A DNA stretch of 64,000 nt from Trametopsis cervina (taxonomy: Eukaryota; Basidiomycota; Agaricomycetes; Polyporales; Irpicaceae), in the NCBI GenBank assembly GCA_022385755.1, contig MU278373.1, positions 62,001 through 126,000 on the forward strand, in the 5' to 3' direction. Below are positions 11,021 through 62,227 of the stretch, one piece after another. Made by a program: the position numbers and the translations under genes. Within the stretch, counting starts at the first letter, position 1; each line of letters begins with the position of its first letter. The notes beneath the pieces are model-generated. The model saw only the letters and a list, made by a program, of their open reading frames with translations. It was not told the DNA's origin and did no database searches.

Positions 11021-12654
11021 ATGGCCACCGCAACGTTACCCCCACTAAACCCACTGCTGAAAGCATCAGGCAAACGAACATGGGACGTGTTTGCTTCAAG
11101 CGCGGATAGTATCTCACATGAAGACGAGAAGAGGTATGTGTGTGTCTTTCAATTACTGCTCATCCGTAAACTTAGAGACTTTGTAGCGCACGCCTTCGGT
11201 TGGCTGTAAAGATAAACGACGAATACAAAGATGCAAAAGAGCTTCCGGCGCCGCTGCTAGCTCAGCAGGGCCAGGTTGGGCCTGCCAGACCGAAGGAGCA
11301 GAGGAAGATGATTGAGGCCGGACGTACGTCGCTGACGCTCTCTCATCCTCCAGCCACTTACATGTCCTGCAGCATCTGCCTCGAATAACACAAGCCTCAT
11401 GATTGCTCAGATAGACAAAACACCCACTTACACCCCCTCGACCTTCAGCTCCTCCGCAAACCTCAACAAGGCACTGCAACTCCACAAGACAACGAGAACA
11501 ATCAAGCCTACGTATCACCCGCCATGGAAGCTCATGCGAGTCATTTCTGGCCACCTGGGCTGGGTACGGAGCGTCGCCGTCGAGCCGGGTAACAAGTGGT
11601 TTGCGACTGGGGCCGGCGACCGCGTCATCAAAATTTGGGACTTGGCTTCGGGCGAGTTGCGGTTGTCGCTGACGGGACACATATCAACTGTGCGGGGGCT
11701 TGCCGTATCGTCGAGACATCCCTATCTGTTCTCCTGTGGAGAAGACAAGGTATGGCGTCTCCTGGCCCCGAGAGCGGCATGACTGATGGGTGTCTCATAG
11801 ATGGTCAAGTGCTGGGATTTGGAGGCGAACAAGGTGATACGGCATTACCATGGTCACCTCTCGGGCGTGTATGCGTTGAGCTTGCATCCCACGCTCGACG
11901 TCCTCGTCACCTCCGGTCGTGATGCATCCGCGCGAGTATGGGATATGCGAACGAAGGCGCAGATACATGTCCTTTCTGGGCATACCGCGACGGTTGCCGA
12001 CGTGCAGTGCCAGGAGTCTGACCCGCAGGTCATCACTGGAAGCATGGACTCGACAGTAAGGTACGCAATTTTTTGAGAGCATGTAAAATGTGCAATGGTC
12101 TTACGGCTCGGACCAGACTCTGGGACCTTGCAGCTGGAAAGACGATGACGACCCTCACCCACCACAAGAAGTCCGTGCGTGCCCTCGCGATACATCCCAC
12201 AGAATACTCCTTCGCCTCCGCGTCCGCCGGCGGAAACAATATCAAAAAATGGAAGTGCCCCGAGGGCACCTTCGTCACGAACTTCAGCGGGCACAACGCC
12301 ATCATCAACACACTGTCCGTCAACTCAGAGGGAGTGCTCTTCTCTGGAGGTATGTTATGTCAACCGCCTCGATAGACGGCACGCGGCTGACTCTGTTGAC
12401 GCAGGCGACAACGGTACGCTTACGCTGTGGGATTATAACACCGGAACTGCATTCCAGAACATGGATGATATTCCGCAACCCGGGTCCCTCGAGGCTGAGG
12501 CTGGCGTTTTCTGCTCGACGTTCGATGCGACGGGCACCCGATTGATCACAGGCGGGGCTGACAAGACCATCAAGGTGCGTGTCCTTTATGGCTGGCATTA
12601 TTCCTGCATGCTGATTCTCTGCCGTTACAGATCTATGCCGAGCAGTCTTCGTAG
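11021..12654 (+). CDS. PRP46: Pre-mRNA-splicing factor Prp46 / PLRG1 / PRL1 (WD40)
   Basis: Phased join 11021..11133, 11187..11323, 11373..11749, 11801..12060, 12117..12349, 12405..12574, 12631..12654, giving 437 residues. A WD40 protein of the Prp19-associated complex (NTC/NineTeen), it is needed for the catalytic steps of the spliceosome in the nucleus. The [14 protein letters not shown] segment, the linker and then [20 protein letters not shown] are diagnostic of PRL1/PLRG1. Seven WD40 repeats follow, with repeat ends such as VIKIWD, MVKCWD, ARVWD, RLWD and LTLWD. Length fits the family (yeast Prp46 451, human PLRG1 514). The C-terminus IYAEQSS is encoded by a 24-nt last exon. It is followed by a remarkable array of 5' splice-site-like sequences. 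Confidence 0.95.
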
Positions 12655-13229
12655 TTGTAGACATATTTTATTACATGTTGTGCTTTGTCTCGCAATGTAT
12701 TTTCTCCCTGTTACGTATATCCACACCAGCAGCGATCATACCAGGGCCGGTGTGTGCCGACATAGTGGCCTTCTTTTCTGGATCCTCGCATCCGCACAAG
12801 TGGCTGGCCGCGGATGGTGAGTGTCAGCCCTGATGCGAATATCATTGAGCTAAAGTCACGTGCTAGACGCGTTCCACCAATCGCGACGCGTCGAGGTGCG
12901 ATCGGTTTGCCTCACGGTGTTATGGCTGACCTGGTTGGAATCTAAATGTCCCAACAAATATAATGTCGCCCGCCTGCCTCTGTGTTCGATATCCTTCTTG
13001 TCTCTCATCCACCACTACAACCTCTCTTCCCTCCCCTCCGCCCTCGCTGACCTTGTCCTCCCACCTCACCTAACATCCTTCCTCTTCGCTCCTAACATTC
13101 TATAGCTAGCTCTCTACTCTCTCTTCAACCCTCTTACTGTTCTGTCTTCAAACCTCCTCTCTATCACGTACGTCGTGCCACTTTTCGCCCCTGTTCTTAT
13201 GTTGACCGCTCTCATAAGCCAACAAGATA
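12655..13229. other. 3' flank of PRP46, pyrimidine-rich
   Basis: There is no coding exon. From about 12990 the plus strand is C/T-rich (CCTCTCTTCCCTCCCCTCC and similar). This leads directly into the splice-site-like array. Confidence 0.5.
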
Positions 13230-13235
13230 TCCGAA

Positions 13236-13898
13236 GGTCAGTCCATTTCGTTGACCAAAGGTAAGTCTGTCGCATGGTAAGTGGTTTCGCTTGTAACAGG
13301 TGGGTGACATGTTCGTTCATGTTATAAGGTCAGTGATTGTTTTTTTGATGCTATAAGGTAGGTAAGTCCATCGCACGGTAAGTCGTCTTCTCTGGTACAA
13401 GGTAGGTCTGCTCTCTCCTCTCGCACGGCAAATTTTAGTTCTCGTCAAGGTAAGTCTCTTACTTATTGTCGCAAGGTAAGCCGTCTCCGTACTACAGCCA
13501 AAGGTAAGTCCATTATATGGTGAGTCATTTCCTCTCACACACAAGGTAAGTCTTTTATAACAACAGGTAAGTTCGTCGCATGGTAGGTCGTCTCTTGTAG
13601 AAGGTAGGTGCTTATGAGGTAAGTGCTTTGTTCTATCTCGGAAGGTATGTGATCTCATTTATTATTGCATCTCAAAGGTACGTTTGTAGCAAGGTCAGTC
13701 ACTCTCTCATACACGAAAGGTAGGTCTCTGATACGTTCTTATTATTCTCAAAGGTAAGCGTTCTCTATTTTGCAGATCCAAGGTAAGTCCGTCTAATGGT
13801 AAGTCGTTTCTTTCGGTACAAGGTAAGTCTTCTCAATTCTTGCTAGGTAAGTTCTTCAGACCGGTACGTCCAGTTCGCTTCTCTAGATTGCGGTAGGT
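13236..13898 (+). repeat. Array of about 29 copies of a 5' splice-site-like motif (AAGGTAAGTC)
   Basis: GGT-N-N-GT or GGTAAGC cores begin at 13236, 13260, 13276, 13299, 13328, 13357, 13361, 13377, 13401, 13449, 13475, 13503, 13519, 13545, 13566, 13582, 13603, 13618, 13644, 13677, 13693, 13719, 13753, 13782, 13798, 13822, 13846, 13863 and 13892. Thirteen are exactly GGTAAGT, the perfect U1 snRNA target. Spacing is commonly 16 nt followed by 24-29 nt, as expected of a diverged tandem repeat of about 40-48 bp with two motifs per unit. The bases between motifs have drifted far more than the motif. On the minus strand part of it is open (13317-13658, 113 codons), but the frame is not shared by successive units. 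It could be a decayed minisatellite, a noncoding RNA or a selected U1-binding tract. Confidence 0.85.
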
Positions 13899-13959
13899 CA
13901 TTTCGCTCGTGCGGGCTGAACTTCAACTTCGATTTTATAGGACGCACCAGCCTCAGCTC

Positions 13960-14590
13960 TACCCCCTCAACAATTCAAGCCACCCGACACACTGACCCCT
14001 TCGCCGCATCTGCCATCCTCAACGCCGCTTCTACACATTTTCCACCTTTGACACCCCCCACACTCTCGATATTTCCAGCAAGAAAACTCACGCTAACGCT
14101 GAAATAGGGCCTAATCTTCTCACAGCGCTGACATTTTTGACTATCTCACCACCTACAGCGGACTTACCCAACGACGCAGGACATTCTTCCACAATTCTTC
14201 TTCACCTCTGACTTCATCCTTCCTTTCTTCATCCTTGATTCACCAACTTCCTATCTCATCTCATCTCTTCTCTTGCCCTTCGTGTTTCTCATCATATCCC
14301 CCTTCGTCGTCCGCATCACTCTTCCCTTTCTCTCATTTTCCTCATCCCTCTTCCCTTTCCCTTCTCACTATACACCCCTTATTCTTTCTCATCATATCTC
14401 CTTCATCTTCCTCATTCTCTTCCCTTTCCCTTCATTTTTCTCATCATATACCCCTTCGTCGTCTTCTTGTTCATTTTCCTGCATCACTCTTCTCTCCTGA
14501 ATTTCACTTCTTTTCTCTTTCATTCTCTCTTATCCGAATTCTCTTCACTCTCACCGTTCTTCCCTCTTCTTTCTATCCTAGTAGATACAA
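13960..14590 (+). repeat. Pyrimidine-rich block with imperfect tandem repeats
   Basis: The plus strand is dominated by C and T. Segments such as CTCATCATAT followed by CCCCTTCGTCGTC or CTCCTTCATC recur at roughly 14288, 14386 and 14441, suggesting an old tandem repeat of about 50-100 bp. Open frames across it have only Ser/Pro/Phe/Leu composition and are not taken as genes. Confidence 0.6.
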
Positions 14591-14598
14591 CATTTTCC

Positions 14599-14682
14599 CC
14601 TGAGGACAGGCGCGGACCTTTTCGTGGTCTCAGGGATAAGTACCTTCCTCCCTTGCGGGAGGTAGGGAAACCAACACGCGCC
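14599..14682 (+). other. Cluster of inverted repeats (candidate structured RNA segment)
   Basis: Short perfect stems occur together: CCTGAG (14599-14604) with CTCAGG (14629-14634), GACC (14615-14618) with GGTC (14626-14629), CCTCCC (14647-14652) with GGGAGG (14657-14662) around a 4-nt loop, and GGCGCG (14609-14614) with CGCGCC (14677-14682). Some of these pairings exclude each other. The cluster directly follows the pyrimidine block. Confidence 0.4.
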
Positions 14683-14699
14683 TTTGGTCAGAAGCATGA

Positions 14700-16040
14700 A
14701 TACATTCTTCCTTGTATTCTGAAATGATCATAATTTCGCCTCTCTATAAGATCGTTTCGTCTTATATCTTAGTACCTGCTCCTGAATTTCGGGAGTGTAC
14801 AGCGCGAGTCAGAATAACGGCGCACAATTCGTTTATCTATCCACCGGCCAGTGACTGATATACCTTCTCAACAATCACACGGGTATTCCATTGACACACA
14901 GACAAAAGCATACTAATCATACAGTCATGGTTGCGAGTTGGTATGTGCTTCCCAACTCTCCGCTCTGGACTTGCGCATGACTGACGTAGTAGGCTACTTT
15001 TCGACCGGTAGATACTCACGGCGAACCCAATCGTACAAGCCGTTCCTTCTATCTGGTGTCATTGATCATTGACTAGCGGAAAGCCCATGACCGCCACAGT
15101 TCTGGGGAAGGGTGAACAGGATGCAAAAGCAAGTAAGGGCCAAACAACAGACCCCACATCCCCGAACGGGAGGCGTGCAGCTGTGTAGGAGAAGTGTGCT
15201 TTCCGCATGACGTATCTTCACTAATGCCCATGGGATGATTGGTGCGCATTCCTTCCGCCGTTATGACGACAATGTTGAGAACTAGAGTGAGCTTCAATCT
15301 GTTTTTTCAAATGCATCTTCCCGACCTGCGCCCCGTTCTCGGAAGCTGGCGCCGCAACACGGGTGCCGCTTCGAAACGGCAGTTGGAAACAAAATACTAC
15401 GGAGAGGTAAGTCGGAGCACGCACGCCACAATGCACTCACCATAAATTCCGCTTGGAGAGGCTACGTTAATAGTGCAATCGCGGATTATGAACAGGGCGA
15501 GCAGAGCTACTTCTCGATTATGACCAGGAGACGGGAACAGCTAGGAGTGCACTGCTTAAAGAAATTGGAGCTAGATCAGTCAGGTCAACACTGATATTTC
15601 GCGGTATCAGCGTGTCGGTCGTTACATTCACAGCTGTTCTCACAGTGTTTGGTATTTACCTGCCAGAATTCCACTTGTCGCTGCAGTCGTTAGCGAAACA
15701 GTTTCGATCAACTCAAGTTGAGCCATATTCATTCTTACCAGCACACCGCTATGAAATGTTCCTCACCATGTTGAACTCGAACATACCGAGAAGGCCTCTC
15801 ATAGCTGTATATCGATGCGACAAAGGGGTCAAATACAAAAATCGCGGGGTGACTAATATTTTCCAAGCTCCGACAGGTGGAAGGGCCACAGATTGAACCT
15901 CCGCCCCTCGCGACTCACACGACTCATGACCGTTTGAGCAAGTGTTGCCTCATTCAGTCAACGTTATCGACGGGCGAGAGACTGTAGACAACTGGAGGAG
16001 GGCACTGTAAAGCAATTGTAGAGTACAGAGCATTCCAACG
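14700..16040. other. Gene-free interval upstream of TFIIS
   Basis: I find no exon chain that can be phased. Open frames here are short and have no recognisable composition. One isolated AGGTAAGTCGG sits near 15404, outside the main array. Confidence 0.5.
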
Positions 16041-17330
16041 ATGTCTGCGCCATCTCAATTGAGGACGTTGGTCAAACAATTGCAAAGTTCCTCTACTGAG
16101 CAGGTACGCAGACGAAGGTATCTCCTGTGCCATTATGTCACTCATGCAGTCGTTCTTTCTGTCTTGTTGTCATTAGGAGATTGTCGGTGTACTACAGACG
16201 TTGAAAGATGAAGCCAAGATCACGGAGTCCGTTCTTCGGGTGAGCCCACCACTTCCAGTTCTATCTCATTGACTAATGACGCGTGCAGGAAAGTAAAGCC
16301 GGTCTCGCTGTCGGAAAGTTGCGTTCGCATGCCTCAAAGCAGGTAGCAGACCTTGCGAAGGAGATTGTAAAGAAGTGGAAGCAGACAGTCGAGCAGGAGA
16401 AGCAGGGCGGTAACAAAGGGTCAGCGGCGGCGGCAGCGAAGCCACCAGGTGAGTGATCATCCAAACGATTCACGGTTCATGGTCTAAGCCAGAATTGCCA
16501 GTCCGCAAACAATCCGTATCCGTCACACCTTCAACCCCAACCACGCCCAGTGCGTCCACACCGTCTGCTGCGCGGCTCTCGGACGTGCGAACCGCCAAAA
16601 GCGACGGCGTGTCGGCCAGCACTGGCGACAACACACGGAACAAGTGTCTAGAGCTTATCTACGATGCGCTCGCACACGACTCTGGTGCACCCTCTGAGCA
16701 AATCTTTGGACGTGCAAAGGGCATTGAGGCCACAGTCTACGCCGAATTCGGCGGCACTACGGCGCAGTACAAGAGCAAGATCCGCACGTTGTTCGTTAAC
16801 CTCAAGGACAAGAATAACCCCGGTCTGCGGGAGTCTGTTGTGGCCGGCGACTTGCCTGTGCAGAGGTTCTGCAAGATGACGAGTGAGGTGAGTGATGCGA
16901 CCAGCCTTGGGCCACGCTATTGGTCATCTTGCGTGCTGCGCTGCCGATCAAAAAGCAAGTGGCGAAAATCGCCCCGGCTCTATCGATTTCCTACACACAA
17001 TTCTTCGGTTAATGTTGCCTGCTCAGACGAAGCTAACCTCTCGTACATAGGACATGGCCTCAGAAGAAAGAAAACTCGCCGACCAAAAAATCAAAGAAGA
17101 AAATCTCTTCAAGTCGCTTGGTGCAGGCGAAGTGCAAGCAGAGACCGACGCGTTCCAATGCGGTCGGTGCAAACAGAGGAAGTGTCGCTACCGTCAAGCG
17201 CAAACGCGCAGCGCCGATGAGCCGATGACGACGTTTGTAACATGTACCGTTTGTAACAACAGGTATGTCTTGCGTCATAGTCACGACACGCTTGAGATTG
17301 ACAACACTGCTCAGGTGGAAGTTCTCGTAG
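16041..17330 (+). CDS. Transcription elongation factor TFIIS
   Basis: Phased join 16041..16103, 16177..16239, 16289..16448, 16493..16887, 17051..17262, 17315..17330, giving 302 residues. TFIIS rescues backtracked RNA polymerase II by stimulating its intrinsic transcript cleavage. Order: N-terminal helical LW/TFIIS N domain (residues 1 to about 90), a Ser/Thr/Pro-rich linker, the central Pol II-binding domain (TRNKCLELIYDALAHDS to CKMTSEDMASEERK) and the C-terminal zinc ribbon with C264, C267, C292 and C295. The catalytic acidic dipeptide D283-E284 in RSADEP is intact. Length matches yeast Dst1 (309). The final exon encodes only the last five residues, RWKFS. Confidence 0.95.
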
Positions 17331-17863
17331 GGAGTTTCGCGTTTATTTTATGCTGTGTGGCTATGTACGCTCCTATCCTTCAATTAATGCTCCTGCTCGA
17401 CTTTGCTCTTTGTACCGTACGAGACAACTCTCTCTTATGATGACATCCATACCAGATCAGATACAGTGACATTGCCCGTGGGATCATGACAAATGTAAGG
17501 ACCGCCATACCTGGCCGTATTCCTCACCGGCCTCGATAATTCCAGGGAGAGTTGTGCTGCCAGCCGTCACTTCTGAACTGAGCTTGCTGCATGTTAGTTT
17601 CTTTATCTCTCCGCAGGCGGGTTCTACAGCTATGACAAGGCCACTCAGAGACTCTGAGATGTATCCGACTGGTCCTATAATGCAGGAATCTATAGTTCAA
17701 GCGGTTCGTCTTAACCGACCCTTTCTTTACTGAGGCATACAGCATACAATAACATATGAACTATTTAGAATCCATCATACAGTACATTCAGTGCTAGGAA
17801 ATCCGGGCGTGTGCACATTCGGCGGTCTACGTGAGCCCAATCCAAGTCAACGCGGCGCGCTGA
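17331..17863. other. Convergent 3' intergenic region
   Basis: The stop codons of TFIIS (plus) and the 49-residue cysteine-rich gene (minus) face each other across this stretch. I see no exon. Confidence 0.5.
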
Positions 17864-18075
17864 TTACTTGGGGGCGCAACTGCAGTTGCCATCGGGGCCC
17901 TTGTATTTCCCGCACCTGGGGCATCGCTCCGTGGTGTTCACGGGTTCCTTTGCCTAAGAAATAGGCCATGCACTTCAGAGATATTCTTTTGTCAGCACTG
18001 GTCTAAACTACTCACCGTCACTGCCTTGAGAGCAACAGCTTCAAGCATCTTGAACACGGAGGTCGAACAATGCAT
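17864..18075 (-). CDS. 49-residue cysteine-rich small protein (metallothionein-like or zinc-knuckle-like)
   Basis: Two phased exons, 18016..18075 and 17864..17953, encode 49 residues. The second half carries CPRCGKYKGPDGNCSCAPK: a CxxC pair, then CxC, four clustered cysteines. The first half is an amphipathic, non-cysteine segment (VFKMLEAVALKAVT). The start has CACCATG context. A 5'-UTR intron (GTATGT near 18139 to ACACAG near 18086) is likely, and a TATA box stands at 18312-18319, which suggests high or inducible expression. Short Cys-rich fungal proteins of this kind often bind copper or zinc, but this one matches no family I can name. It is too short to be found by a length-filtered gene search. 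Confidence 0.65.
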
Positions 18076-18311
18076 GGTGGGTACTGTGTATGCGCAAGTC
18101 AATAAGGGTTGAAGAGCAGATATCCCATACTACATACCGAGGTAGGGAGATGAAAAGCTTGAGCGGTGCGTGGGGGGTTGTTGGGGTCGTGCGGCTGCTG
18201 TAGAAGGGTAAGTACCAGGAAGTCGAAGTAGTGCTGGAAAGAAACTTGCCGGGGAGCTGCTGGAGTTGTTGGAGGGCGGTGAGTGATAGCTATAGCTCCC
18301 TCAAACAAGGG

Positions 18312-18319
18312 TTTATATA
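18312..18319 (-). promoter_or_regulatory. TATA box of the 49-residue gene
   Basis: TATATAAA on the minus strand, about 235 bp upstream of the start codon and before an inferred spliced 5' UTR. Confidence 0.6.
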
Positions 18320-18339
18320 CGCTTGCCAGCCATTCCATA

Positions 18340-18475
18340 TGTCCGCGAATGGGTATGTGGCGAATACGCACATCCTGCGTGGTTGCATTCCGACCATTGC
18401 GCAATTTTGCGGCGGCTTCATTCGCCACTCTGCTGCGTTAGCCACTTTCCTACGTTCGCCACTCCGGAATGGACG
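18340..18475 (-). promoter_or_regulatory. Repeated GTGGCGAA / AGTGGCGAAT motif upstream of the TATA box
   Basis: On the minus strand GTGGCGAACG, GTGGCTAACG and GTGGCGAATG occur within 50 bp (plus-strand 18418-18465), with two related GCGAAT words at 18348-18368. The even clustering upstream of a TATA box suggests a transcription-factor site array. The factor is not identified. Confidence 0.35.
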
Positions 18476-18813
18476 GCACGCGTTCGGCGCATGACAAAGG
18501 AGAGGCACAAAACCAGCTGGTGATTTCCTCCCGTATTTTAGTTATCCAGCAAGGGTTGCATTGCTACCTGGAAGAATAGCTGGATTCACGGATCGTGTGC
18601 TTGGAATTCCTGAGATACAGGTTATGTGCATTCTCCGGGCGGAGTCGGACTGCAATTCAATACGGTCGCATTTCAAGCGGCACGGACCGTAGTGCTGATT
18701 TTGTGAACTCTGGGAACCTACTATCTGTGAGTCCGCACACAGTCAGACAGAGGGAATGAGACAATATGATAAATTACGGATGAATGAAGTATGCGACAGC
18801 CAGTATGTGTAAT

Positions 18814-21578: not shown

Positions 21579-24500
21579 ATGGTCAACAGTCCAGAGCCTA
21601 GCGAATCAGCTGAACAACCCTCGCACTTACCCAACGTAGATGATACGCCCAATCCGCCGCCGACCGACAGGATGTGCCACCACTGCTCCTCCTGTTGCAA
21701 AGATACTCATGATGCGACCATACCAAACACTGCGTCGCCAGCGACGGTTAGTAAGTCCATCTCTCGCCTTGTATATATCGTAGCAGCTCTGAATGGACTG
21801 TTCTGCAGGCTCGCAGCACCATCAACTCCAGCAACTGACTGGATGGGAGGCAGTTGAGAAGGCCATCAAAGACTTCGATACGGGGCAAGTTGCTATGTAC
21901 AGGGATGATATTGACACGCTCCTTGTCTTTGTGAGTAATATCACTAATCCAGACTTTATGTCCTAATTCTCATCACGTATAATGTACCAGGATGGACTGT
22001 TCTCTGCCGCTGTTACAGCGTTCGTGATTGCTTCATATCCACTGCTACAGGAGGACACAACGGGCGCAATCTTAGTGGCCGTACAGCAGCTAGTCAACCA
22101 GACCGCCGGATATAGCGTCCTCGGCGGCACGTTGGTGAATACCACGGCCGCGCCTCCGGCTCCTACCTCTCCATTCAAGCCGACGCCTGGAATCGTCCGC
22201 GTGAACACACTCTGGTTCTCCAGCCTTGTTGTCAGCCTTTCCGCGGCCTCCCTTGGAATCTTTGTCAAACAGTGGCTTCGTGCATACTTGGCTTTTTCTA
22301 CAGCATCACCACAAGGACAGCTGCGCGCTCGGGAGTTCCGACATGCCGGCATGGAGGCCTGGAGGGTGTATGGGATCGCTGCATCGCTCCCTTTGCTCAT
22401 CCAAGCAGCACTTGGACTTTTCTTCACCGGCCTCTGCTACTTTACTGCCGAAGCGAACGAAAGCATTGGCAGGACAACGTTCATCTTGGTCGCCGCGTGG
22501 GGATTCATGACCTCCGCCATCTTGATATGTCCTGTTTTCTCATCGCGGTGTGCGTACAAGACGGCAGCCTTTGAGCCGATCACGACCGTCATCCGCCGTC
22601 GGGTGTTTCCCAAAGCGTACACCGTTCTCAAGGCGGCCGCAGCGCTAGTTCTGACCGCGCTCATCTCGTTCATCAGCCCAATCGTCGCTCTATTGAATTT
22701 CCTTTGTTTCTCGGTGATATTGGTGAGCGCGCGCCTGGTTGTTGCAATCTTTGACAGGCTACCTCCTTTACCCGGGAGGATGAGAACTGCCAATCAGGCC
22801 GTGCGGAGGATCGCAAGTCGTATGGAAGGGACATCAGTGGGTCGTACGGTGGCAAGGAGCTGGCGTATTGTGCGTACCTGGGGAAGTATTATCCTGGTAA
22901 TTCTGGGCTACATAGGCCAATTATGGACAACGATACTGGACAAGGACAAGAACCATAAGTTTTCTGCATGGCGCGACGTGACCCATATATTCCCTGAATG
23001 GGACCCTGTAGAGGAATCTGCAGCGATCCACGATGCCAGCAAGGATCTACAAATTCTAGCGGCCGCAGATGCTATTCAAGCCCACGACCAGCTCCTTGGA
23101 ACGACGATGAAGGCTGCTCTAGAGCAAAGCAATGCACGATGGCAAGATGTGGTTGAGTTTCTGATTGGGGTTATCGGAAATCGGATTCCTTTGACTGCGA
23201 CGTTCGCGGAGATACCTACGCTGGTCGATCTGGACGCACTTCCCGGTCAGACATGCAACACCTTTATCGAATTCTTCGCACGGCATGTTGTCCCATTCGC
23301 GGAAGACATTTCCAAGGAGCTCCAAGGTTTTCACACCAATCAGCACATCCCTGCCTGGTGGGCTCTCTGCCTTGGTGTTTCCCTGCATCGCTACGATACT
23401 TCTTTGTCGCCGTTTATCTCCCAATGCCTTTCCGAAGATACCACTGTTTTTACGAGGCTAATTCGCCTCGATTCTCACAACACCACTGGCTGGGAGGAAC
23501 TGATACTGCCCTATCTGAGCCGAGCCCTTCGAGAGACAGAGCTTTCATCCGAATTAGCGCCATACCTTGCGATGCTGCACGTCGCTGCCATTGAGTATTT
23601 TGGCAGACAGCATATCCCAGGGTCAATCCCGAAGAGAGGAATCATTCTCCGAACGCCACGAGGCGAATACCTGCTCGATAGCGCCTGGCAACTCGTATCC
23701 AGCATCATTCTCAAGGTGTCGCATAACGACCTCACAGAAGAATGGCCTGCATGGCTCGATGACGCCGTCCTGCTATTCTTTCGCCTGTATGCCCTGACCC
23801 AAATAGGCGGGTTTGAGAGCCGCAGAACATCTCCTAACCCGACGTACCTGCAAATCACAAAGCGCGTTGAAATTGCAGGTCCCATTGCGCTGTCCACGAT
23901 AGTCTCTCACCTGGTCAACTTACGATCTGTAGAGTCGATCGATACACATTCATTCGCACTGGTCACTCTTCTTGACATCGTCTTCGTACGCGAATGGGAC
24001 GCAACTACGCAGGGCGAATTACCGGCGTTACATGAACTTGAGTCTCGGATGCGAGACCCAACAGGCACGTTGTCACGTCGAGTAGACTGGGTCGAGACTT
24101 ATAATCGAAGTTTTTTCCTAGGCTTTATGAACTTTGCGATCGCAGTCAGGAACATTGTTGACATCGTCAAACAGCCTATGCCTTACGAACTGCTGAAGTT
24201 GTGTCTCATAGTCATACAACTTGCATCCTATCGACGTTCTTGGCATCTACAGCGTCGGCATACGTGGCGTTTCATTTTTCACATATTAGCCGACGTGCAA
24301 TTGGCAAGCAGCGATAGGCGCGTGCGTAGTATATGCACGTACCGTGATTTCGAACCCCTTAGTGGGCTCGACCACAGTCCAGAAGACCACTACGAGGATT
24401 GGTGTCGCACCTTCAACCCTACAACATCTCTCGTGGGGGATAAATTCTGGGTTGCGGTAACTCAGCTCTTCTTTAATGGTACTCCCTCGCCGAACATCAT

Positions 24501-25251
24501 GGTCCATCTTCCGTGGCGAATGCGACGAATCTATGGAATGTCATCTTCAAAGCGGACGCGGCTCATGAGACAGGAAATGAGGGTGCCCAATCCCGTTCTA
24601 ACTGACTGGAGTCCACGAGGAAGCCGTACGGATCAGAACAACATCTCGCGCGACCATGATTCTGCTGCGGGTGAACGCGGTGGCTCTACGGGAAGCTTCC
24701 CAAGCACGAGAGGCGACCCGTCCCTTGCAAGGACTGAACTCCTTGCCTCACGATCTCGGGGAGCATTATCAGAGGAATCCAGACACATAGGAACGGAGAT
24801 AGAGGACGACTGGACGGATGTCGGTTCAGTTTACGACTACCAACCCCACACCACCGCCAGGCACCTTGCAGTCTTCGCAGGTGACAACCCTACCGTTGGG
24901 AGAGCTGGGAGATACAGCGAGGGCGTAGGCTCGCTCGCAGATGCCGATAGTAGGAATCCTAGCGCTTCAGGCGTACGCTCGCCTCCAACCGACGAACCAG
25001 TGGTAGAGATGACAGCCAGCGACGCTGGGGCTAGCGCAAACCTGAACCAGTCCCCTCAGTTCGCGAACAGTGACGAAGACGACACTCTCCTTGCAGTGAG
25101 ATGGATCGCACAAGACGAGGCCGAGGCATCACCACACCCTCCAGCATTTTCTTCTGGCGCCGATATGGTAGCGGAAGTGGGAGCCACGTTATCGACGCCA
25201 GCGGAGCACGCCGTAGGCCTGCAGGTAACGACGGAGCCGGGTGTCGGTTGA
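21579..25251 (+). CDS. DUF6535-domain membrane protein
   Basis: Phased join 21579..21750, 21809..21930, 21991..25251, giving 1184 residues. After a Cys/His-bearing N-terminus (CHHCSSCCKDTH) and GWEAVEKAIKDFDTGQVAMY come the hallmarks of DUF6535: DGLFSAAVTAFVIASYPLL, a helix near VNTLWFSSLVVSLSAASLG followed by KQWLRAYL, and two further helices (IAASLPLLIQAALGLFFTGL, ILVAAWGFMTSAILICPVF). The first 300 residues are therefore a four-helix membrane module. A long soluble helical region follows, then an acidic, Ser-rich disordered tail from about residue 970. DUF6535 proteins are expanded in Agaricomycetes and have no established function. The alternative donor GTTAGT at 21747 was rejected in favour of GTAAGT at 21751. 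Confidence 0.9.
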
Positions 25252-53614: not shown

Positions 53615-53704
53615 GTCCCAGCAAACGAGAAAGCGACCTCAGTAACACACCGCTATCGCTACAACGCCTCTCGTAAAACAACTCTCTAACCTCATTTTCT
53701 CGCT

Positions 53705-56170
53705 ATGTCTGTCACTTCAAACACTTCCCCCTGGAAGACTATCGACGTAGGAAACACGGCGCGTCTCTCCGAGGAATACTTGGCCGACTTCCCTCTCCCC
53801 ACACCCTCGCGACCTACCTCACCGCGCGCAGCAACTCCCTCGAGACTCTCCCCTGCACCTCCACTGCAGGAGCTATCTCCAGCCGACAAACCAGTCGCTC
53901 CGCAACTCACCCCATACGACGGGCCGACTCTTCCGCCGGCTCTCACTCCTCTGCCCGTCACGCCTCCTCCCAGGAAGACAAAGAAGACGGGTAAATCCCG
54001 AGCCAAGCGAATCAACACCGACCTCCCGCCTGCAGCTGACCTCGAACAGGCAATCCCGCCGAGCCAGAATTTCTTCGCGGCGCTGGAAACCTCGTTCACA
54101 GACCTGTCGGCGAGTGACGCTCCCTTGCAGTCCCATGCGCGTACGCGGGAACGGACCAGACCAGTGCGTACAACGTCAGACGCCTTCTGGCCAGCACTAA
54201 CTAGCCCGCAGAACGCAGAAATCTCCACGGCGGGAGGCCCTGACAGAACGGAACGGAAACGGCTCATTAATGCCACCTCTGCGAACCTGGCAGGTCTCTC
54301 GAACCGCTCAGCCAACCCCATTATGGGAGCGAGTGGTCGCCGAACATCAGGCCGTCACCCAGCACTCGACCATCTCCCGTCCATTCCTTGGCTAACCGAC
54401 GCAGACTTCTACCAAGTCCATGGTAGGCCCCGCGAAGGAGACGACGTCACAACTGAAGAAGCGGACGAACGCATGCACGATTTCGACAACGGCATCAATG
54501 ACTGGACGATCCTCACGGCAGACCAAATCAGAAACCGTGAAATACGGATGGCTAAAAACATCGAAGATCTGGAACTACGTCTTGGTCGAATTCCAATCCC
54601 AAGCATTCTCCCACTTGAGCTGGCGTACCCGAAACGCGCTGAACTCGCGAGACAAATCGCTATCAAAGAACGACGAGTGGCTTGGCCTCAGCCGGACGAA
54701 GACTACCGCCAATCGCCTATGCCCTTGTCCTTCCCGGAACAAAGCGAAGTTACCAATCTTCCTTCCCCTCGGAATAGCCATCGATCTCATCCTTCGGACG
54801 CCCGCAGCCCCTCTGTCGTCACGTACCAGATCACGGAAAGAGATGTTATACCGACGAACCCCGGACAGTCAGCTAGTCAACCACCGCTCCGACCACCCCG
54901 CACGCCTTCCCTCCCTCCACAACCATCTTCACCCTCCCCGCTCCTTTCGCCATTCCAGCTAGCATCCTCGCCGCTACCTGCATCAGACCCCGTGGAAGAT
55001 ATAGACATGGGAGAGCCCGTACAGCGTGCTGACATACCGAGCATCCCGGATGAAATGGCGCCTAACCCGCCACACACCCCGATCATCAAACACACACATC
55101 GTCTCCCGTATGCTCACCCCGCTGCTCATTGGCGACGACCACGCGGACCCCACCCGTCATGGTGGTTTAACAACCTAGCTCTCTCCCAGCTAGCGGGCTG
55201 GAAGTCATATCAGGGACCTTCAGTGCTCATTCGTCTCGCCTTTGAAGGCTGCCCGACCAAAGACACGGCAGCGTTGCGTACCACTCAGATCGAGAGCATC
55301 ATCACGGGAGCCCTGGGCCCAATCGAAGGCCTCCGCGTCGCCTTTCCAGCCCCATACATGATCCCCGGGGAACAGCAGAACGGGAATAAAGACCATACAA
55401 AAAGGCGTCCCAAACCTGGACAACCTCCGTACTCATACCTCGGCTTCGGAATCACAGACGAGATCCGCGAAACGCTGCTGAACCTGAAGGCTATCTCGAC
55501 CACGGAAGGGACAGTTTTCTTCACGCCGAACGAAAGCACTGTTGACTCTCTTTTACTCAGCGTGGAAGGGGTAGCTACTCGAACCACCCCGGACGAATTG
55601 ATAGCCCATCTACAAATAGTTTTCGACGCATGCAGCCTAGACGACGCTATCGATGCCGCTACTCCTACCAACCCACTCTTCGCCGAATTCACCCTCGAAG
55701 AAGCCAGATATATCGTACGACAATCCTTGCAAGTGACGATTCATGACGCACGATCTGCGGATGACAAACCCATCCGCATTGCACACATCTTCATACTACC
55801 ACCGACTGCAGTTCCAAAGCTCTGGCAGGACTTTAAAGACGCGGCACTATTGGCTAACTTCACCTCCTTTTTCTGGGGCATGGATATGGCCCCCTTCGAT
55901 GGTTGGCTGTGCGCGTGCTGCCACTCGGCGCTCCACCCCACTGACAAGTGTCCTGTTTTAACTGAAGCAGGGTGGTACCCACCTCCGAACCGTCCCAAGC
56001 CGACAACACCTCCTGCGCTCAAGCAAGCGGAAATTACTCCGCCCGACGACGGCACGAGCTTCACGACTATCAAGCCAACCTCCTCGACCAGAGGGGACGG
56101 CCGCCGCAAGAACAAGGGCCGCGGTAACCGTAACGGGAACGGTCGGGGTGGAGACAAAGCTCGAGGATAA
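53705..56170 (+). CDS. LINE ORF1 (Gag-like RNA-binding protein)
   Basis: 821 residues. The first 500 are Pro/Ser-rich and disordered, with basic patches (PPRKTKKTGKSRAKR). A folded region follows (WWFNNLALSQLAGWKSY, VLIRLAFEGCP, YLGFGITDEIRETLLNLKAI). A perfect retroviral-type zinc knuckle C-x2-C-x4-H-x4-C uses C736, C739, H744 and C749. The C-terminus is Gly/Arg/Lys-rich (RRKNKGRGNRNGNGRGG), suited to RNA binding. Its role is to coat the element RNA in the RNP. The start follows the sequence CTCGCTATGTC. Confidence 0.9.
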   Translation: MSVTSNTSPWKTIDVGNTARLSEEYLADFPLPTPSRPTSPRAATPSRLSPAPPLQELSPADKPVAPQLTPYDGPTLPPALTPLPVTPPPRKTKKTGKSRAKRINTDLPPAADLEQAIPPSQNFFAALETSFTDLSASDAPLQSHARTRERTRPVRTTSDAFWPALTSPQNAEISTAGGPDRTERKRLINATSANLAGLSNRSANPIMGASGRRTSGRHPALDHLPSIPWLTDADFYQVHGRPREGDDVTTEEADERMHDFDNGINDWTILTADQIRNREIRMAKNIEDLELRLGRIPIPSILPLELAYPKRAELARQIAIKERRVAWPQPDEDYRQSPMPLSFPEQSEVTNLPSPRNSHRSHPSDARSPSVVTYQITERDVIPTNPGQSASQPPLRPPRTPSLPPQPSSPSPLLSPFQLASSPLPASDPVEDIDMGEPVQRADIPSIPDEMAPNPPHTPIIKHTHRLPYAHPAAHWRRPRGPHPSWWFNNLALSQLAGWKSYQGPSVLIRLAFEGCPTKDTAALRTTQIESIITGALGPIEGLRVAFPAPYMIPGEQQNGNKDHTKRRPKPGQPPYSYLGFGITDEIRETLLNLKAISTTEGTVFFTPNESTVDSLLLSVEGVATRTTPDELIAHLQIVFDACSLDDAIDAATPTNPLFAEFTLEEARYIVRQSLQVTIHDARSADDKPIRIAHIFILPPTAVPKLWQDFKDAALLANFTSFFWGMDMAPFDGWLCACCHSALHPTDKCPVLTEAGWYPPPNRPKPTTPPALKQAEITPPDDGTSFTTIKPTSSTRGDGRRKNKGRGNRNGNGRGGDKARG

Positions 56171-56568
56171 ATAGTCTTGAATAATCTCCTTGTACGAATG
56201 ATTGAATACCTCCGAATGCGCATTTTACTCGCTTCCTTTCCGTTGTCTTCTTAACTGCCTGCTTCGACCACTGAGACCCAAATATACTGGGCCGTGCCTC
56301 GGCACGGTGACAGGAAAGTCTTTCACGTCGCAAAACTGTTGTGGGCATGAACCTCCCACTGGGCATAAGGACACCCCATGCCGCGATAACTGATACTTAA
56401 GCACGGCGGGGTGCCCAGGTTCTTACATCTCCGGATCGGTCGTTACGGAGTTGGAAATTGCCTATTTAGGCCGACCGCACCCAAGTACAATCACAAGAAA
56501 ACGAACACTCAACGGTAAACACTCACGGCACGGCTACTCTCCTCGATGAGGCTCGAGACGCCCGGCGT
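56171..56568 (+). other. LINE inter-ORF spacer with two strong hairpins
   Basis: CCGTGCC-TC-GGCACGG (56292-56307) is a perfect 7-bp stem. A second stem pairs CACCCC/GCCG (56372-56383) with CGGC/GGGGTG (56404-56413). ORF2 must be translated from the same RNA across this gap of about 400 nt. Confidence 0.7.
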
Positions 56569-59500
56569 TTGCCCGCCAACCTGGGCGCTGAGGACGGCCT
56601 CAACGAGATCGGCGACGGGAACAGTAATATACCCCAACATTATGATACCCACTCTTCGCGTCTTGCTGCGCGACCTAATACACCCAATGATAACAATATG
56701 GGAGACAATGGTGCTACCGCACCCCACAGCCCGCATACGAACACGCTGGACGAAAACCCTGCACATTTGCACCTCTCGCCCCCGCCCTCCAGCTTTCTTT
56801 CGTACGTAACAATGCCCTCCCCACAACCTCCATCCATCCCTCTACTCCACAGAACGGCGCGGTCCGAGAGTGCTCGACCGATGGGGCCACTTGATCACAG
56901 CAGGCCGCACCGTCGGGAATCTTCACTACCCCAACCTACGATGGCCCCCCTTTCCTCAGTCAACAGACATCCGGAGAACACAGACTTAGATCGCCCTCAG
57001 TCTCCGTCGGCCAATGTCACACCTCCTGTGCCAAACCAACCGCAAGCGAATCCCAAAAAGAAAAAACGCCTCTACAACAAACGCACGGCAGCGACGCTGC
57101 GACTAGCCTCGCTAAACATGAAAGGAAGGGGTACCCTGAACGGGGCAGTAAGTGACAAGTGGATGCGTATTAACCAAGTTCTACGCGAAGAGCGCACCGC
57201 AATCCTTGCCATACAGGAAGCGCACCTCGACCAGGCTTATGTTGACCAGCTGCTGACTCTCTTTGGAGCCCGGCTCTCCATCCACTTCTCAGCCTCTCCC
57301 GGCCGCGAACGAACCGCACACGGTGTAGCCTTCGTCATTAACAAGGACCGTTTGGACGCTTCCCAAATCTCCTCCGTCGACATCATCCCAGGAAGAGCTA
57401 TACTGCTCAAAGTAGTTTGGCACAAGGGTACGATCCTTCACATTTTGAATGTCTACGCCCCAAACGTCACATCCCAGAACGCTCTCTTCTGGGAAGAACT
57501 CACAGAAAAATTCTCCAGCAACTCTTTCCCGCGGCCGGACATCATACTTGGCGACTTCAATGTCGTCGAGGACGCGATCGACCGCCTCCCGGCACGTAAC
57601 GACCCTGTTCGAGCAACGAGCGCCCTCTATGATCTACACTCCATGCTCGGGCTGGTGGACGGATGGAGAACCGAGAACCCTCACGAAAAATCATACACCT
57701 ACGCTCAAGATCACGGCACGAGCCTATCGAGGCTGGACCGCGTATACCTCACCCCGGAACTTGCCAAATCGGCCTCAGACTGGGTAACAAAAGTCGTCGC
57801 AGGTATCCCCACGGATCACAGTCTCGTGTCCGTAACTATCTCCGACCGCTCAGCGCCGTACATCGGAAAGGGCCGTTGGGTCTTTCCCCGGGCAGCCCTC
57901 TCGGACCATGCTTTCACCGCCTACGTCATTTCGGCGGGCAGAACCCTCTTACAGTCCATACCTGATGACAACCTCCGCGATGAACACCACAATGTCCAAA
58001 CCCTCTACGCTCAATTTAAACGAGATGTCACGAAACGCGCGAGGGACTCCGCGAAAGTTAACATTCCCAAACTTAACAGACGAATCATGAAACTACGAAC
58101 GGAACGTGATAATCTCCTCAACTCTACCGACCCACACCCGGCCGTGGATGTACCCTTCGAAGCCGCGATCCTGCTGCAACGCATTAAGGATCTCGAGGCT
58201 CGACGGTTTGGAGCCTCTAGACGAGCAGTTGCGGCACGCAGCTGGGCTACAAATGAGGAAATCTCCCAACCCTGGATAGCTCGCAACACTCCCAAAAAGC
58301 CCCGCGACTTCTTTATGGAAATCAGGGACCCGTCCTCTGGATGGCCCAGGGGAAATCCCCTCTTCGACGACGCCAACCTTCCTCGCTACGCCACGCGCAC
58401 AGAAGACATGGCGACTTTGGCACGAAACTATCACGACAACGTCCAGGGCTCTGACATCCATCCAACTACTCCCTCCGCGCGACGTGACCACATCCGCACA
58501 GCTACCAACCATATCCGCCGTAAATTGCCCCCGGAGGCATACCACGCCTTAGAATCGACCATCTCGGAAGACGATCTCGCGACGGCGCTTAATCTATGCG
58601 CCGCAGGCAGAGCCACAGGCTTAGACGGCATCCCGTATGAGTTCTGGAAGGACCTCCACCGCCAACACCTGGCCGGACAGAAAAACCAAACAGACACCTT
58701 CGATGTCCTTCGCTTACTGAGCCTGCTATACAAAGACATCACCGACCACGGTCTGGTTGACGGATCCACCTTCGCCGAAGGATGGATTATGCCACTATAC
58801 AAAAAAGGAGACCGACGGGAAATAGCCAACTATCGGCCGATTACCCTCCTGAACTCGGACTACAAACTACTTACAAAAGCCCTCTCGATCAGACTGGCCA
58901 CATGGATACACACCGTCATTCACCCTGACCAAGCCGGTTTCATCCCCGGGAGGTCCATTTTCGACCAAACGAACCTTGCACGGATGATGGCAGACTATGG
59001 GGAAGCTATGGAAGAAAATGGGGCAATCATCGCCCTCGATCAAGAAAAAGCGTACGACAGAGTGCGTCACGACTACCTCTGGGAAGTCTTGGATGCGATA
59101 GGGGCTCCACCCACATTCATCCAACTAATTCGTAACCTCTACCAGAATGCGAATTCCGTTGTAGCGATAAATGGCGTTTTCAGCGACACTTTCCGAATTA
59201 CCCGTGGAGTGCGCCAGGGTGACCCTCTGTCATGCCTACTTTTCGACATCGCTATTGAACCCATGGCAGAAATGTTGCGCCAGTCCGACCTAGTAGGTTT
59301 CCAACTCCCAGGCATGTCCGAACGCCTTATTACTACCCTTTTTGCAGACGACACCACAGTATATCTCGCACAACAAGACGACTACGCTCGTCTCCAGCAC
59401 ATCCTCGCAAGCTGGTGCCTGGCGGCAGGGGCGAAATTTAACCTCAATAAAACGGAAATAATACCGATCGGCACGACGGACTATCGCTCTCAAGTGGCCC

Positions 59501-62010: not shown

Positions 62011-62024
62011 TAGTCAGGCTAGCC

Positions 62025-62156
62025 CCACACGACCTCATCCTGTGTGGATGTGGGTGTGCACCAATGCATTTCCTCTGTGATGTATTTGTTACTCAGCGGG
62101 TGAGATCCCCTCGTACAAGCAGGACCGGTGGGGACCGCTAAGCGGACTGCCACCGG
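62025..62156 (+). other. LINE 3' UTR hairpins
   Basis: CCACAC (62025-62030) pairs with GTGTGG (62042-62047). Near the tail a nested hairpin has outer arms CCGGTGG (62125-62131) and CCACCGG (62150-62156), and inner arms CCGC (62135-62138) and GCGG (62142-62145). The second ends 15 nt before the A tract, where LINE reverse transcriptases bind their template. Confidence 0.7.
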
Positions 62157-62170
62157 GCCATTTGGCTCAT

Positions 62171-62227
<57 letters not shown>

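What the first reader, a model, noticed from the sequence alone, without database searches (positions are those of the whole stretch)
13236..13898. Dense array of about 29 consensus 5' splice sites in a gene-free tract
Cores of the form GGTNNGT or GGTAAGC recur every 16-30 nt for 660 bp; 13 are exactly GGTAAGT by my count. A GGTNNGT core is expected about 0.6 times and GGTAAGT about 0.04 times in random sequence of that length. Flanks often read AAG|GTAAGTC, the U1 snRNA complement, while the bases between motifs have diverged. The tract begins about 580 bp after a spliceosome gene and runs into a 600-bp pyrimidine block. If transcribed on the plus strand it could titrate U1 snRNP or suppress nearby polyadenylation. 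Alternatively it is a decayed minisatellite whose core happens to resemble a donor.
Basis: partly seen in the sequence, partly recalled or inferred. Interest (0 to 1): 0.82.

Follow-up and report, generated by a model that had tools for sequence, protein, structure and literature searches.

The report
Fungal array of splice-donor-like motifs
A wood-decay fungus carries, between two genes, one 660-base cluster of about 29 copies of the signal that marks the start of an intron; the copies have kept their sequence while the DNA between them has scrambled, so they may be kept for a reason, perhaps to hold the splicing machinery, but nothing yet shows that the stretch is transcribed.

Summary
Between the PRP46 and TFIIS genes of Trametopsis cervina (Polyporales), 13236-13898 holds 27 GGTNNGT and 2 GGTAAGC on the + strand (13 exact GGTAAGT), none on the - strand. 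Genome searches found the array once in the 29.4-Mb assembly.

It is not a simple decayed minisatellite. With the motif masked, spacer self-similarity is near the shuffled null (14 against a mean of 10.8), while five other repeat arrays tested from this genome score 27-88. Single-base variants of GGTAAGT fall only at positions 4, 5 and 7 (4, 9, 2), never at 1, 2, 3 or 6. A faint older repeat is still visible (16-bp spacings, TCGCA words).

Best reading, held weakly (0.38): an old tandem array whose AAG|GTAAGTC core was kept as a U1 snRNP landing site in a noncoding transcript. Against it: 10 of 29 copies are poor donors for this fungus, six through +4 G, which donors here seem to avoid; no transcription evidence; no relative's DNA could be read; the U1 gene was not found. 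A neutral relic (0.32) and a DNA-binding-protein cluster (0.23) remain open. Titration of the U1 pool is unlikely; an effect in cis is likelier.

The parts
13236..13898 (+). array of 29 donor-like motifs, consensus AAGGTAAGTC, core GGTNNGY, 15-34 bp apart
13260..13282 (+). first of six dyads with cores exactly 16 bp apart (others begin at 13361, 13503, 13566, 13677, 13782): the clearest trace of an old tandem unit; spacer consensus CCGTCGCAT
   Evidence: TCGCA words
13427..13433 (+). degenerate copy GGCAAAT, recognisable from the TCGCAC spacer before it
11336..12654 (+). 3' exons of PRP46/PLRG1 (spliceosomal WD40 protein; start of the stretch is only a stop-to-stop frame border), stop 12652-12654; last intron donor GTGCGT at 12575
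12985..13195 (+). pyrimidine-rich block (77%) just before the array; possible promoter or transcript-start region (inference)
13940..14610 (+). pyrimidine-rich block after the array; 14178-14580 is the longest AG-free stretch of the window on either strand (402 nt)
14600..14800 (.). sequence with unusually stable predicted folding directly after the pyrimidine block (z -4.1 as + strand RNA); possible exon or separate noncoding RNA; no Rfam match at the cut-offs
16041..17330 (+). TFIIS gene, next gene downstream on the same strand; five introns with donors GTACGC, GTGAGC, GTGAGT, GTGAGT, GTATGT

Best explanation
An old tandem array in the 3.4-kb gap between PRP46 and TFIIS whose 10-base core AAG|GTAAGTC has been kept while its spacers decayed to near-randomness. 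The most likely reason is that the core works in RNA: a + strand noncoding transcript (a start just after the pyrimidine block at 12985-13195, or a read-through from PRP46, is inferred) offers about 20-29 U1 snRNP sites with almost no branch points near them. Many U1 snRNPs bind, splicing cannot be completed, and the transcript is held or processed in cis: premature polyadenylation suppressed, nuclear retention, or hand-over to RNAi as a stalled splicing substrate. Shown: motif density, single strand, one place found in the genome, core kept against spacer, position-specific variation, donor-strength predicted pairing, and RNAi domains in the genome. Inferred: transcription, U1 binding, and any effect.
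For: 29 same-strand motifs, 0 reverse. Consensus AAGGTAAGTC equals the eukaryotic donor consensus (C/A)AG|GTAAGT (recalled) plus C at +7. Motif-masked self-similarity is at the null (14; null mean 10.8, max 16 of 60 shuffles), whereas five other arrays of the same genome keep 27-88 (null means 7.5-13.0); a second masking of the array alone gives 12 against 10.7. 15 of 15 single-base variants lie at positions 4, 5, 7 of GGTAAGT (Monte Carlo p 5.5e-5 if independent); both changes at position 7 are T to C, as in donors (GTRNGY). Predicted U1 pairing averages -9.3 kcal/mol; the same number of core changes put at random positions reaches it in 8 of 1000 runs, and decay at 15, 20, 26 or 30% per base in 0 of 300 runs each. 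Only 2 CTRAY branch-point words in the array, so the donors are mostly unpaired. Two loci whose pieces cover nearly the whole RdRP profile, and several Piwi-domain loci, are in the genome.
Against: No transcription data; no DNA of a relative could be read. 10 of 29 sites break the local donor rule GTR[ACT]GY: +3 C in 3, +4 G in 6, one lost core; GTRGGY words are not followed by acceptor signals here (0 of 210, 4.2 expected). 8 of 14 changes at +3/+4 are transitions, much as in the dyad spacers (10 of 14, counted by hand), so those two positions look free rather than selected for pairing. Choosing sites by their core exaggerates core-over-flank contrast: control arrays show part of it too. The motif is not predicted to be unusually accessible in RNA (0.04, against 0.03 with spacers shuffled and 0.10 for all 7-mers). 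Motif copies share ancestry, so p-values that assume independence are too small. Weak spacer homology is in excess of the null (30 lags against 12.5, max 21). The U1 gene was not found.
Confidence: 0.38

Rival explanations
1. Neutral relic: an ancient minisatellite, or a run of short templated duplications of the GGTAAGTC word itself, with no present function; the likeness to a donor is chance, noticed because donors are a familiar motif.
For: Residual tandem structure: six dyads with 16-bp spacing and a shared spacer; 5 of 5 exact TCGCA words in 13200-13930 stand one base before a core or core remnant; 30 lags with weak spacer segments against a null of 12.5, max 21. Decaying arrays with alternating short and long spacing exist elsewhere in this genome (17/27 bp in L017). 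Another GTAAGTA array, period 21, lies on contig C16. 10 of 29 copies are poor donors.
Against: Uniform decay does not give cores at a mean major-base share of 0.88 beside flanks at 0.48-0.49 with spacer homology at the null, nor 15 of 15 single variants in three of seven positions.
Confidence: 0.32
2. DNA-level cluster: AAGGTNNGTC is the binding site of a sequence-specific protein, and the array is a homotypic regulatory or chromatin element for TFIIS, PRP46 or a noncoding gene.
For: The kept positions GGT..GT with two free bases look like a split protein-binding motif; the variation at the free bases does not follow donor rules; spacings show a slight 10-bp phase (52 of 2000 null draws as strong; one of six periods tried).
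Against: All 29 sites share one strand, whereas sites gained singly would be mixed (shared ancestry can explain this); no known fungal factor with this site came to mind (recall, no motif database was searched); the match to a nine-base donor consensus would be a coincidence.
Confidence: 0.23
3. Giant or alternative 5' splice region of a real long intron: the array provides alternative donors spliced to an acceptor after the 402-nt AG-free tract (first AG after it near 14580), joining an upstream leader to the structured sequence at 14600-14800.
For: Order of elements on the + strand: donors, five CTRAY words at 13992-14208, a long AG-free pyrimidine tract, then AG and a stably folding sequence.
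Against: The intron would be roughly 690-1350 nt, while the five TFIIS introns are about 50-165 nt (read with the protein); whether five CTRAY words exceed what such composition gives was not simulated; the pyrimidine tract by itself explains the lack of AG.
Confidence: 0.05

Closest known systems
U1-binding 5'-splice-site-like elements in papillomavirus late 3' untranslated regions
   Same: Donor-like sequences downstream of a coding region on the sense strand, reported to bind U1 snRNP and inhibit polyadenylation (passages of PMC5343901; the four weak sites are known here only from a reference title in that paper).
   Different: Four weak sites in a virus against about 29, mostly strong, sites in a fungal chromosome; no RNA or U1 evidence here.
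Stalled-spliceosome RNAi (SCANR) in Cryptococcus, and the intron of the fission-yeast dg centromeric RNA
   Same: Splice signals that are not productively used mark a transposon or noncoding RNA for RNAi (passages of PMC5851062 and PMC5322907); this fungus also has RdRP and Piwi domains.
   Different: Those are ordinary or poorly spliced introns, not donor arrays; no small-RNA data here.
U1 telescripting (suppression of premature polyadenylation by U1)
   Same: Would need only donors, in sense, in the transcribed stretch (recalled).
   Different: Described for long genes with dispersed sites (recalled); not tested here.
Decaying repeat arrays of the same genome (L017, L032, L001, L016)
   Same: Tandem cores with a mean core identity of 0.86-1.00 (array 0.88); L017 also alternates short and long spacing.
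   Different: Their spacers remain clearly homologous (masked score 27-88 against null means 7.5-13.0); here they do not (14 against 10.8).

Membership tests
Functional 5' splice sites (spliceosomal introns) | donor matches the organism's consensus GTR[ACT]GY | tested here: inconclusive
   19 of 29 sites fit; the local consensus rests on six hand-read introns and noisy scans
Functional 5' splice sites (spliceosomal introns) | branch point and acceptor at an intron-like distance | tested here: not met
   2 CTRAY words in 663 bp for 29 donors, though 20 YAG words occur; no coding frame to define exons (one 113-aa - strand frame only)
Functional 5' splice sites (spliceosomal introns) | transcribed and spliced | not testable with these tools
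   no RNA data
U1-binding regulatory element (papillomavirus-type, telescripting) | several sense-strand sites able to pair with the U1 5' end | tested here: met
   22 of 29 sites at or below -8 kcal/mol, against 9% of 844 other GGT sites of the + strand; the U1 sequence was typed from recall
U1-binding regulatory element (papillomavirus-type, telescripting) | U1 snRNP bound in vivo or in vitro | not testable with these tools
   none
Minisatellite (tandem repeat) | head-to-tail copies with detectable unit homology | tested here: inconclusive
   TRF finds nothing in the array even at score 30; six 16-bp dyads and TCGCA words are residual signs; masked best match at the null, weak matches in excess
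Widespread satellite | many genomic copies | tested here: not met
   DNA search returns only itself (that search skips very common words); 14 of 51 GGTRNGT triples in the genome lie here, and the 51 compare with 57 for the reversed control pattern
SCANR-type RNAi template | RNAi genes present | tested here: met
   31 RdRP and 20 Piwi-domain matches of exon pieces; the named control genomes rang in 0 and 1 of 14
SCANR-type RNAi template | stalled spliceosomes and siRNAs from the locus | not testable with these tools
   no data

The most novel reading that the evidence does not exclude
A single-copy chromosomal locus encodes a noncoding RNA that is little more than a row of about 29 unpaired, selectively kept U1 sites: a natural U1 platform that keeps its own transcript, and perhaps the PRP46-TFIIS read-through, from polyadenylation or export, or feeds it to RNAi as a permanently stalled splicing substrate. 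Its place next to a spliceosome gene would allow feedback on splicing capacity.
Probability: 0.2. Interest if true: 0.82.

Novelty: new variant of a known kind. Interest (0 to 1): 0.5.

Why it matters
Whether U1 snRNP has jobs apart from splicing outside animals is open (general knowledge). A compact donor array without acceptors, found once in the genome, is a natural experiment: deletion or inversion of 660 bp in a wood-decay fungus would show what unpaired U1 sites do to a transcript, to nearby polyadenylation and to small-RNA production. If it is neutral instead, it is a clear case of how a motif can look selected inside an old repeat.

Tried and rejected
Telomerase RNA was considered for the 13.2-14.9 kb region (long gap, structured 3' part): no piece of 7 nt or more of a (CCCTAA)n template lies in 12600-16100 on either strand, and an 18-nt CCCTAA probe has no exact match in the assembly. 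Of 40 contig ends fetched, none has more than six TTAGGG or CCCTAA words, but 7 of the 20 contig starts begin with withheld N, and other telomere repeats were not tested; dropped.

A known RNA gene: no Rfam match reaches its cut-off in the window, only three weak matches below cut-off in 12000-18500. A protein-coding repeat: spacings show no period of 3. An interspersed element: searches found no second copy of 13201-13910 or 14590-16030.

Finding the U1 gene to check its 5' end: the Rfam model (its control rang nowhere) and three patterns gave no U1; the three hits hold no U1 match, and one reads as a splice donor on the other strand.

Ab initio intron finding was poor: one search missed all five TFIIS introns and the last PRP46 intron, so donor statistics from it are only indicative (for example +4 G in 1 of 25 GTNNGY introns). 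The 30 introns average only -4.7 kcal/mol with U1, no better than the 844 other GGT sites at -5.1, which I take as unreliability of that set; it was not used as the yardstick. (association of GT hexamers with acceptor signals, about 112 kb, both strands) is a little better but small.

The dyad comparison (GGT..GT 0 of 60 changes, the two inner bases 4 of 24, spacer 14 of 54, downstream 24 of 72) is biased because dyads were chosen by their cores; a seventh dyad with 17-bp spacing was left out of the count.

Anchored identity profiles show core-over-flank contrast in control arrays as well, so the masked test was preferred. Of the 12 other array rows, five went into (two of them from one locus, L017); left out were two purine/pyrimidine-rich rows of the window, L041, L047, L048 and the two rows of L025 that repeat L017. 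In one search L016 was masked at one mismatch and the others at two. Variant spectra of the controls hold 0-14 variants each, too few to say whether such uneven variation is rare.

Helical phasing: six periods tried, best 52 of 2000; not significant after allowing for six tries.

Full report
What is there. The window is part of contig C26 of a 29.4-Mb fungal assembly. The best database match of the TFIIS exon read from 16453-17220 is a Trametopsis cervina protein in NCBI, 100% identical over the 51% of the query that aligns (the query runs on into an intron), on a contig of 426,999 bases, the length of C26; its sequence reads from the exons at 16041-17330 (compared by eye). The organism is therefore Trametopsis cervina, a wood-decay fungus. 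The gap between PRP46 (stop 12652-12654) and TFIIS is 3.4 kb. In it, 13236-13898 holds 27 GGTNNGT and 2 GGTAAGC on the + strand and none on the - strand; 13 are GGTAAGT. Over 29 sites the seven core columns G, G, T, A, A, G, T have their main base in 29, 29, 28, 24, 20, 28 and 27; A precedes in 22 and 21, and C follows in 18.

Is it chance or a known repeat? Simulated sequence of the same base steps excludes chance. A DNA search of the genome returns only the tract itself (that search skips very common words); the exact triple GGTAAGT pattern has three of its four places here and one on C16; of 51 looser triples in the genome 14 lie here, and 51 compares with 57 for the reversed control pattern. 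Tandem Repeats Finder does not report the array, even at score 30.

Relic of a tandem repeat? Partly. Six pairs of cores are exactly 16 bp apart and share a spacer like CCGTCGCAT, and all five exact TCGCA words in 13200-13930 stand one base before a core, one of them a degenerate one, GGCAAAT. So at least part of the array grew by tandem duplication. But with motif occurrences masked, the best remaining self-match scores 14, where shuffled spacers give 10.8 on average and up to 16 in 60 shuffles (12 against 10.7, max 17 of 100, with a slightly different mask); weak matches are in modest excess (30 lags against 12.5, max 21). Five other repeat arrays from four fetched loci of the same genome, masked in the same way, score 59, 81, 38, 88 and 27 (null means 10.9, 9.8, 7.5, 9.8, 13.0). 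The cores here have thus outlived their spacers.

Pattern of change within the core. Scanning 13201-13910 for single-base variants of GGTAAGT (which does not presuppose which base varies) finds 15: four at position 4, nine at 5 (one of them the overlapping copy at 13357), two at 7 (both C), none at 1, 2, 3 or 6; p is 5.5e-5 if changes are independent, which they are only in part because copies share ancestry. The free positions correspond to donor +3 and +4, the T/C position to +6, and the invariant ones to -1, +1, +2 and +5. That is the general shape of a donor. In detail it is not a good donor profile: +3 is C in 3 of 29 and +4 is G in 6 of 29, while the six introns read by hand are GTGCGT, GTACGC, GTGAGC, GTGAGT, GTGAGT and GTATGT, and none of 210 GTRGGY words in about 112 kb (both strands, the array left out) is followed by branch-point and acceptor signals, against 15 of 210 GTRAGY (4.2 expected for each). 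By that rule 19 of 29 copies are good donors. G at +4 could still pair with U1 by wobble (general knowledge), so the U1 reading survives better than the splicing reading.

Pairing. Computed against the U1 5' end (typed from recall; the U1 gene of this genome was not found), the 29 sites average -9.3 kcal/mol; six introns of the flanking genes range from -7.1 to -13.0; 844 other GGT sites average -5.1; the 30 introns of the poor ab initio set average -4.7. Random placement of the same number of core changes matches or beats the array in 8 of 1000 runs; decay at 15, 20, 26 or 30% per base in 0 of 300 runs each. Accessibility of the cores in predicted RNA structure is not raised.

Surroundings. 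A pyrimidine block (12985-13195) precedes the array and a longer one (13940-14610) follows it; 14178-14580 is the longest AG-free run of the window. Directly after it lies a sequence with unusually stable predicted folding (z -4.1 for 14600-14800 as + strand RNA). In a scan of 12600-16200 by 150 bases the lowest z of each strand falls here (-2.8 and -3.2), though windows near 15675 and 15975 reach -2.4 and -2.6 on the - strand. It has no Rfam match at the cut-offs and no second copy was found. Whether these pieces belong together is unknown; a transcript starting between the first block and the array is an inference.

Mechanism and rivals. I hold U1 recruitment in cis as the leading reading at 0.38, a neutral relic at 0.32, a DNA-binding cluster at 0.23 and a giant-intron donor region at 0.05. 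Donor-like elements that bind U1 and inhibit polyadenylation are described for papillomavirus late regions (passages of PMC5343901), and unproductive splicing as an RNAi signal in Cryptococcus and fission yeast (passages of PMC5851062 and PMC5322907; the primary SCANR paper is not held). RdRP and Piwi domains are present here (31 and 20 matches of exon pieces), one Piwi-domain gene about 21 kb upstream on the same contig. Titration of the whole U1 pool by one locus seems unlikely (general knowledge).

Novelty. Six literature searches (listings and abstract beginnings only, 8-14 papers of each shown, 3) showed no report of a chromosomal array of this kind; a seventh for the species listed nothing on this locus. 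The library holds open-licence papers only, so this is weak evidence. Because no RNA and no relative could be examined, interest is moderate: an unusual, well-defined and easily tested object.

Noticed in passing
window 14600-14830: Stable predicted folding on both strands right after the pyrimidine tract, with a GGCGCG/CGCGCC stem enclosing two hairpins in the + strand fold; no Rfam family at the cut-offs, no second copy found in the genome. Possible unrecognised noncoding RNA.
   Followed up: partly
window 14178-14580: 402-nt run without AG on the + strand, the longest in the window.
   Followed up: partly
L001 1335-1541 (C16:229.5-229.7 kb): A separate degenerate 21-bp tandem repeat with GTAAGTA in many units, found because it holds the only other exact GGTAAGT triple that the genome search returned.
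   Followed up: partly
L017 and L025, first 440 bases: Contig-end repeat arrays with alternating 17/27-bp spacing of TGACCGG, with the same opening sequence on two contigs (C12 and C20).
   Followed up: partly
window 53690-62227: Probable non-LTR retrotransposon: two long stop-to-stop frames (826 and 1846 aa; the second with endonuclease and reverse transcriptase matches and a below-cut-off RNase H match) and a run of 56 A at 62172-62227, suggesting a recent insertion.
   Followed up: no
G000:C26:53647-54760: Piwi-domain gene about 21 kb upstream of the array on the same contig.
   Followed up: no
window 21967-25251: 1094-aa reading frame with a DUF6535 domain.
   Followed up: no
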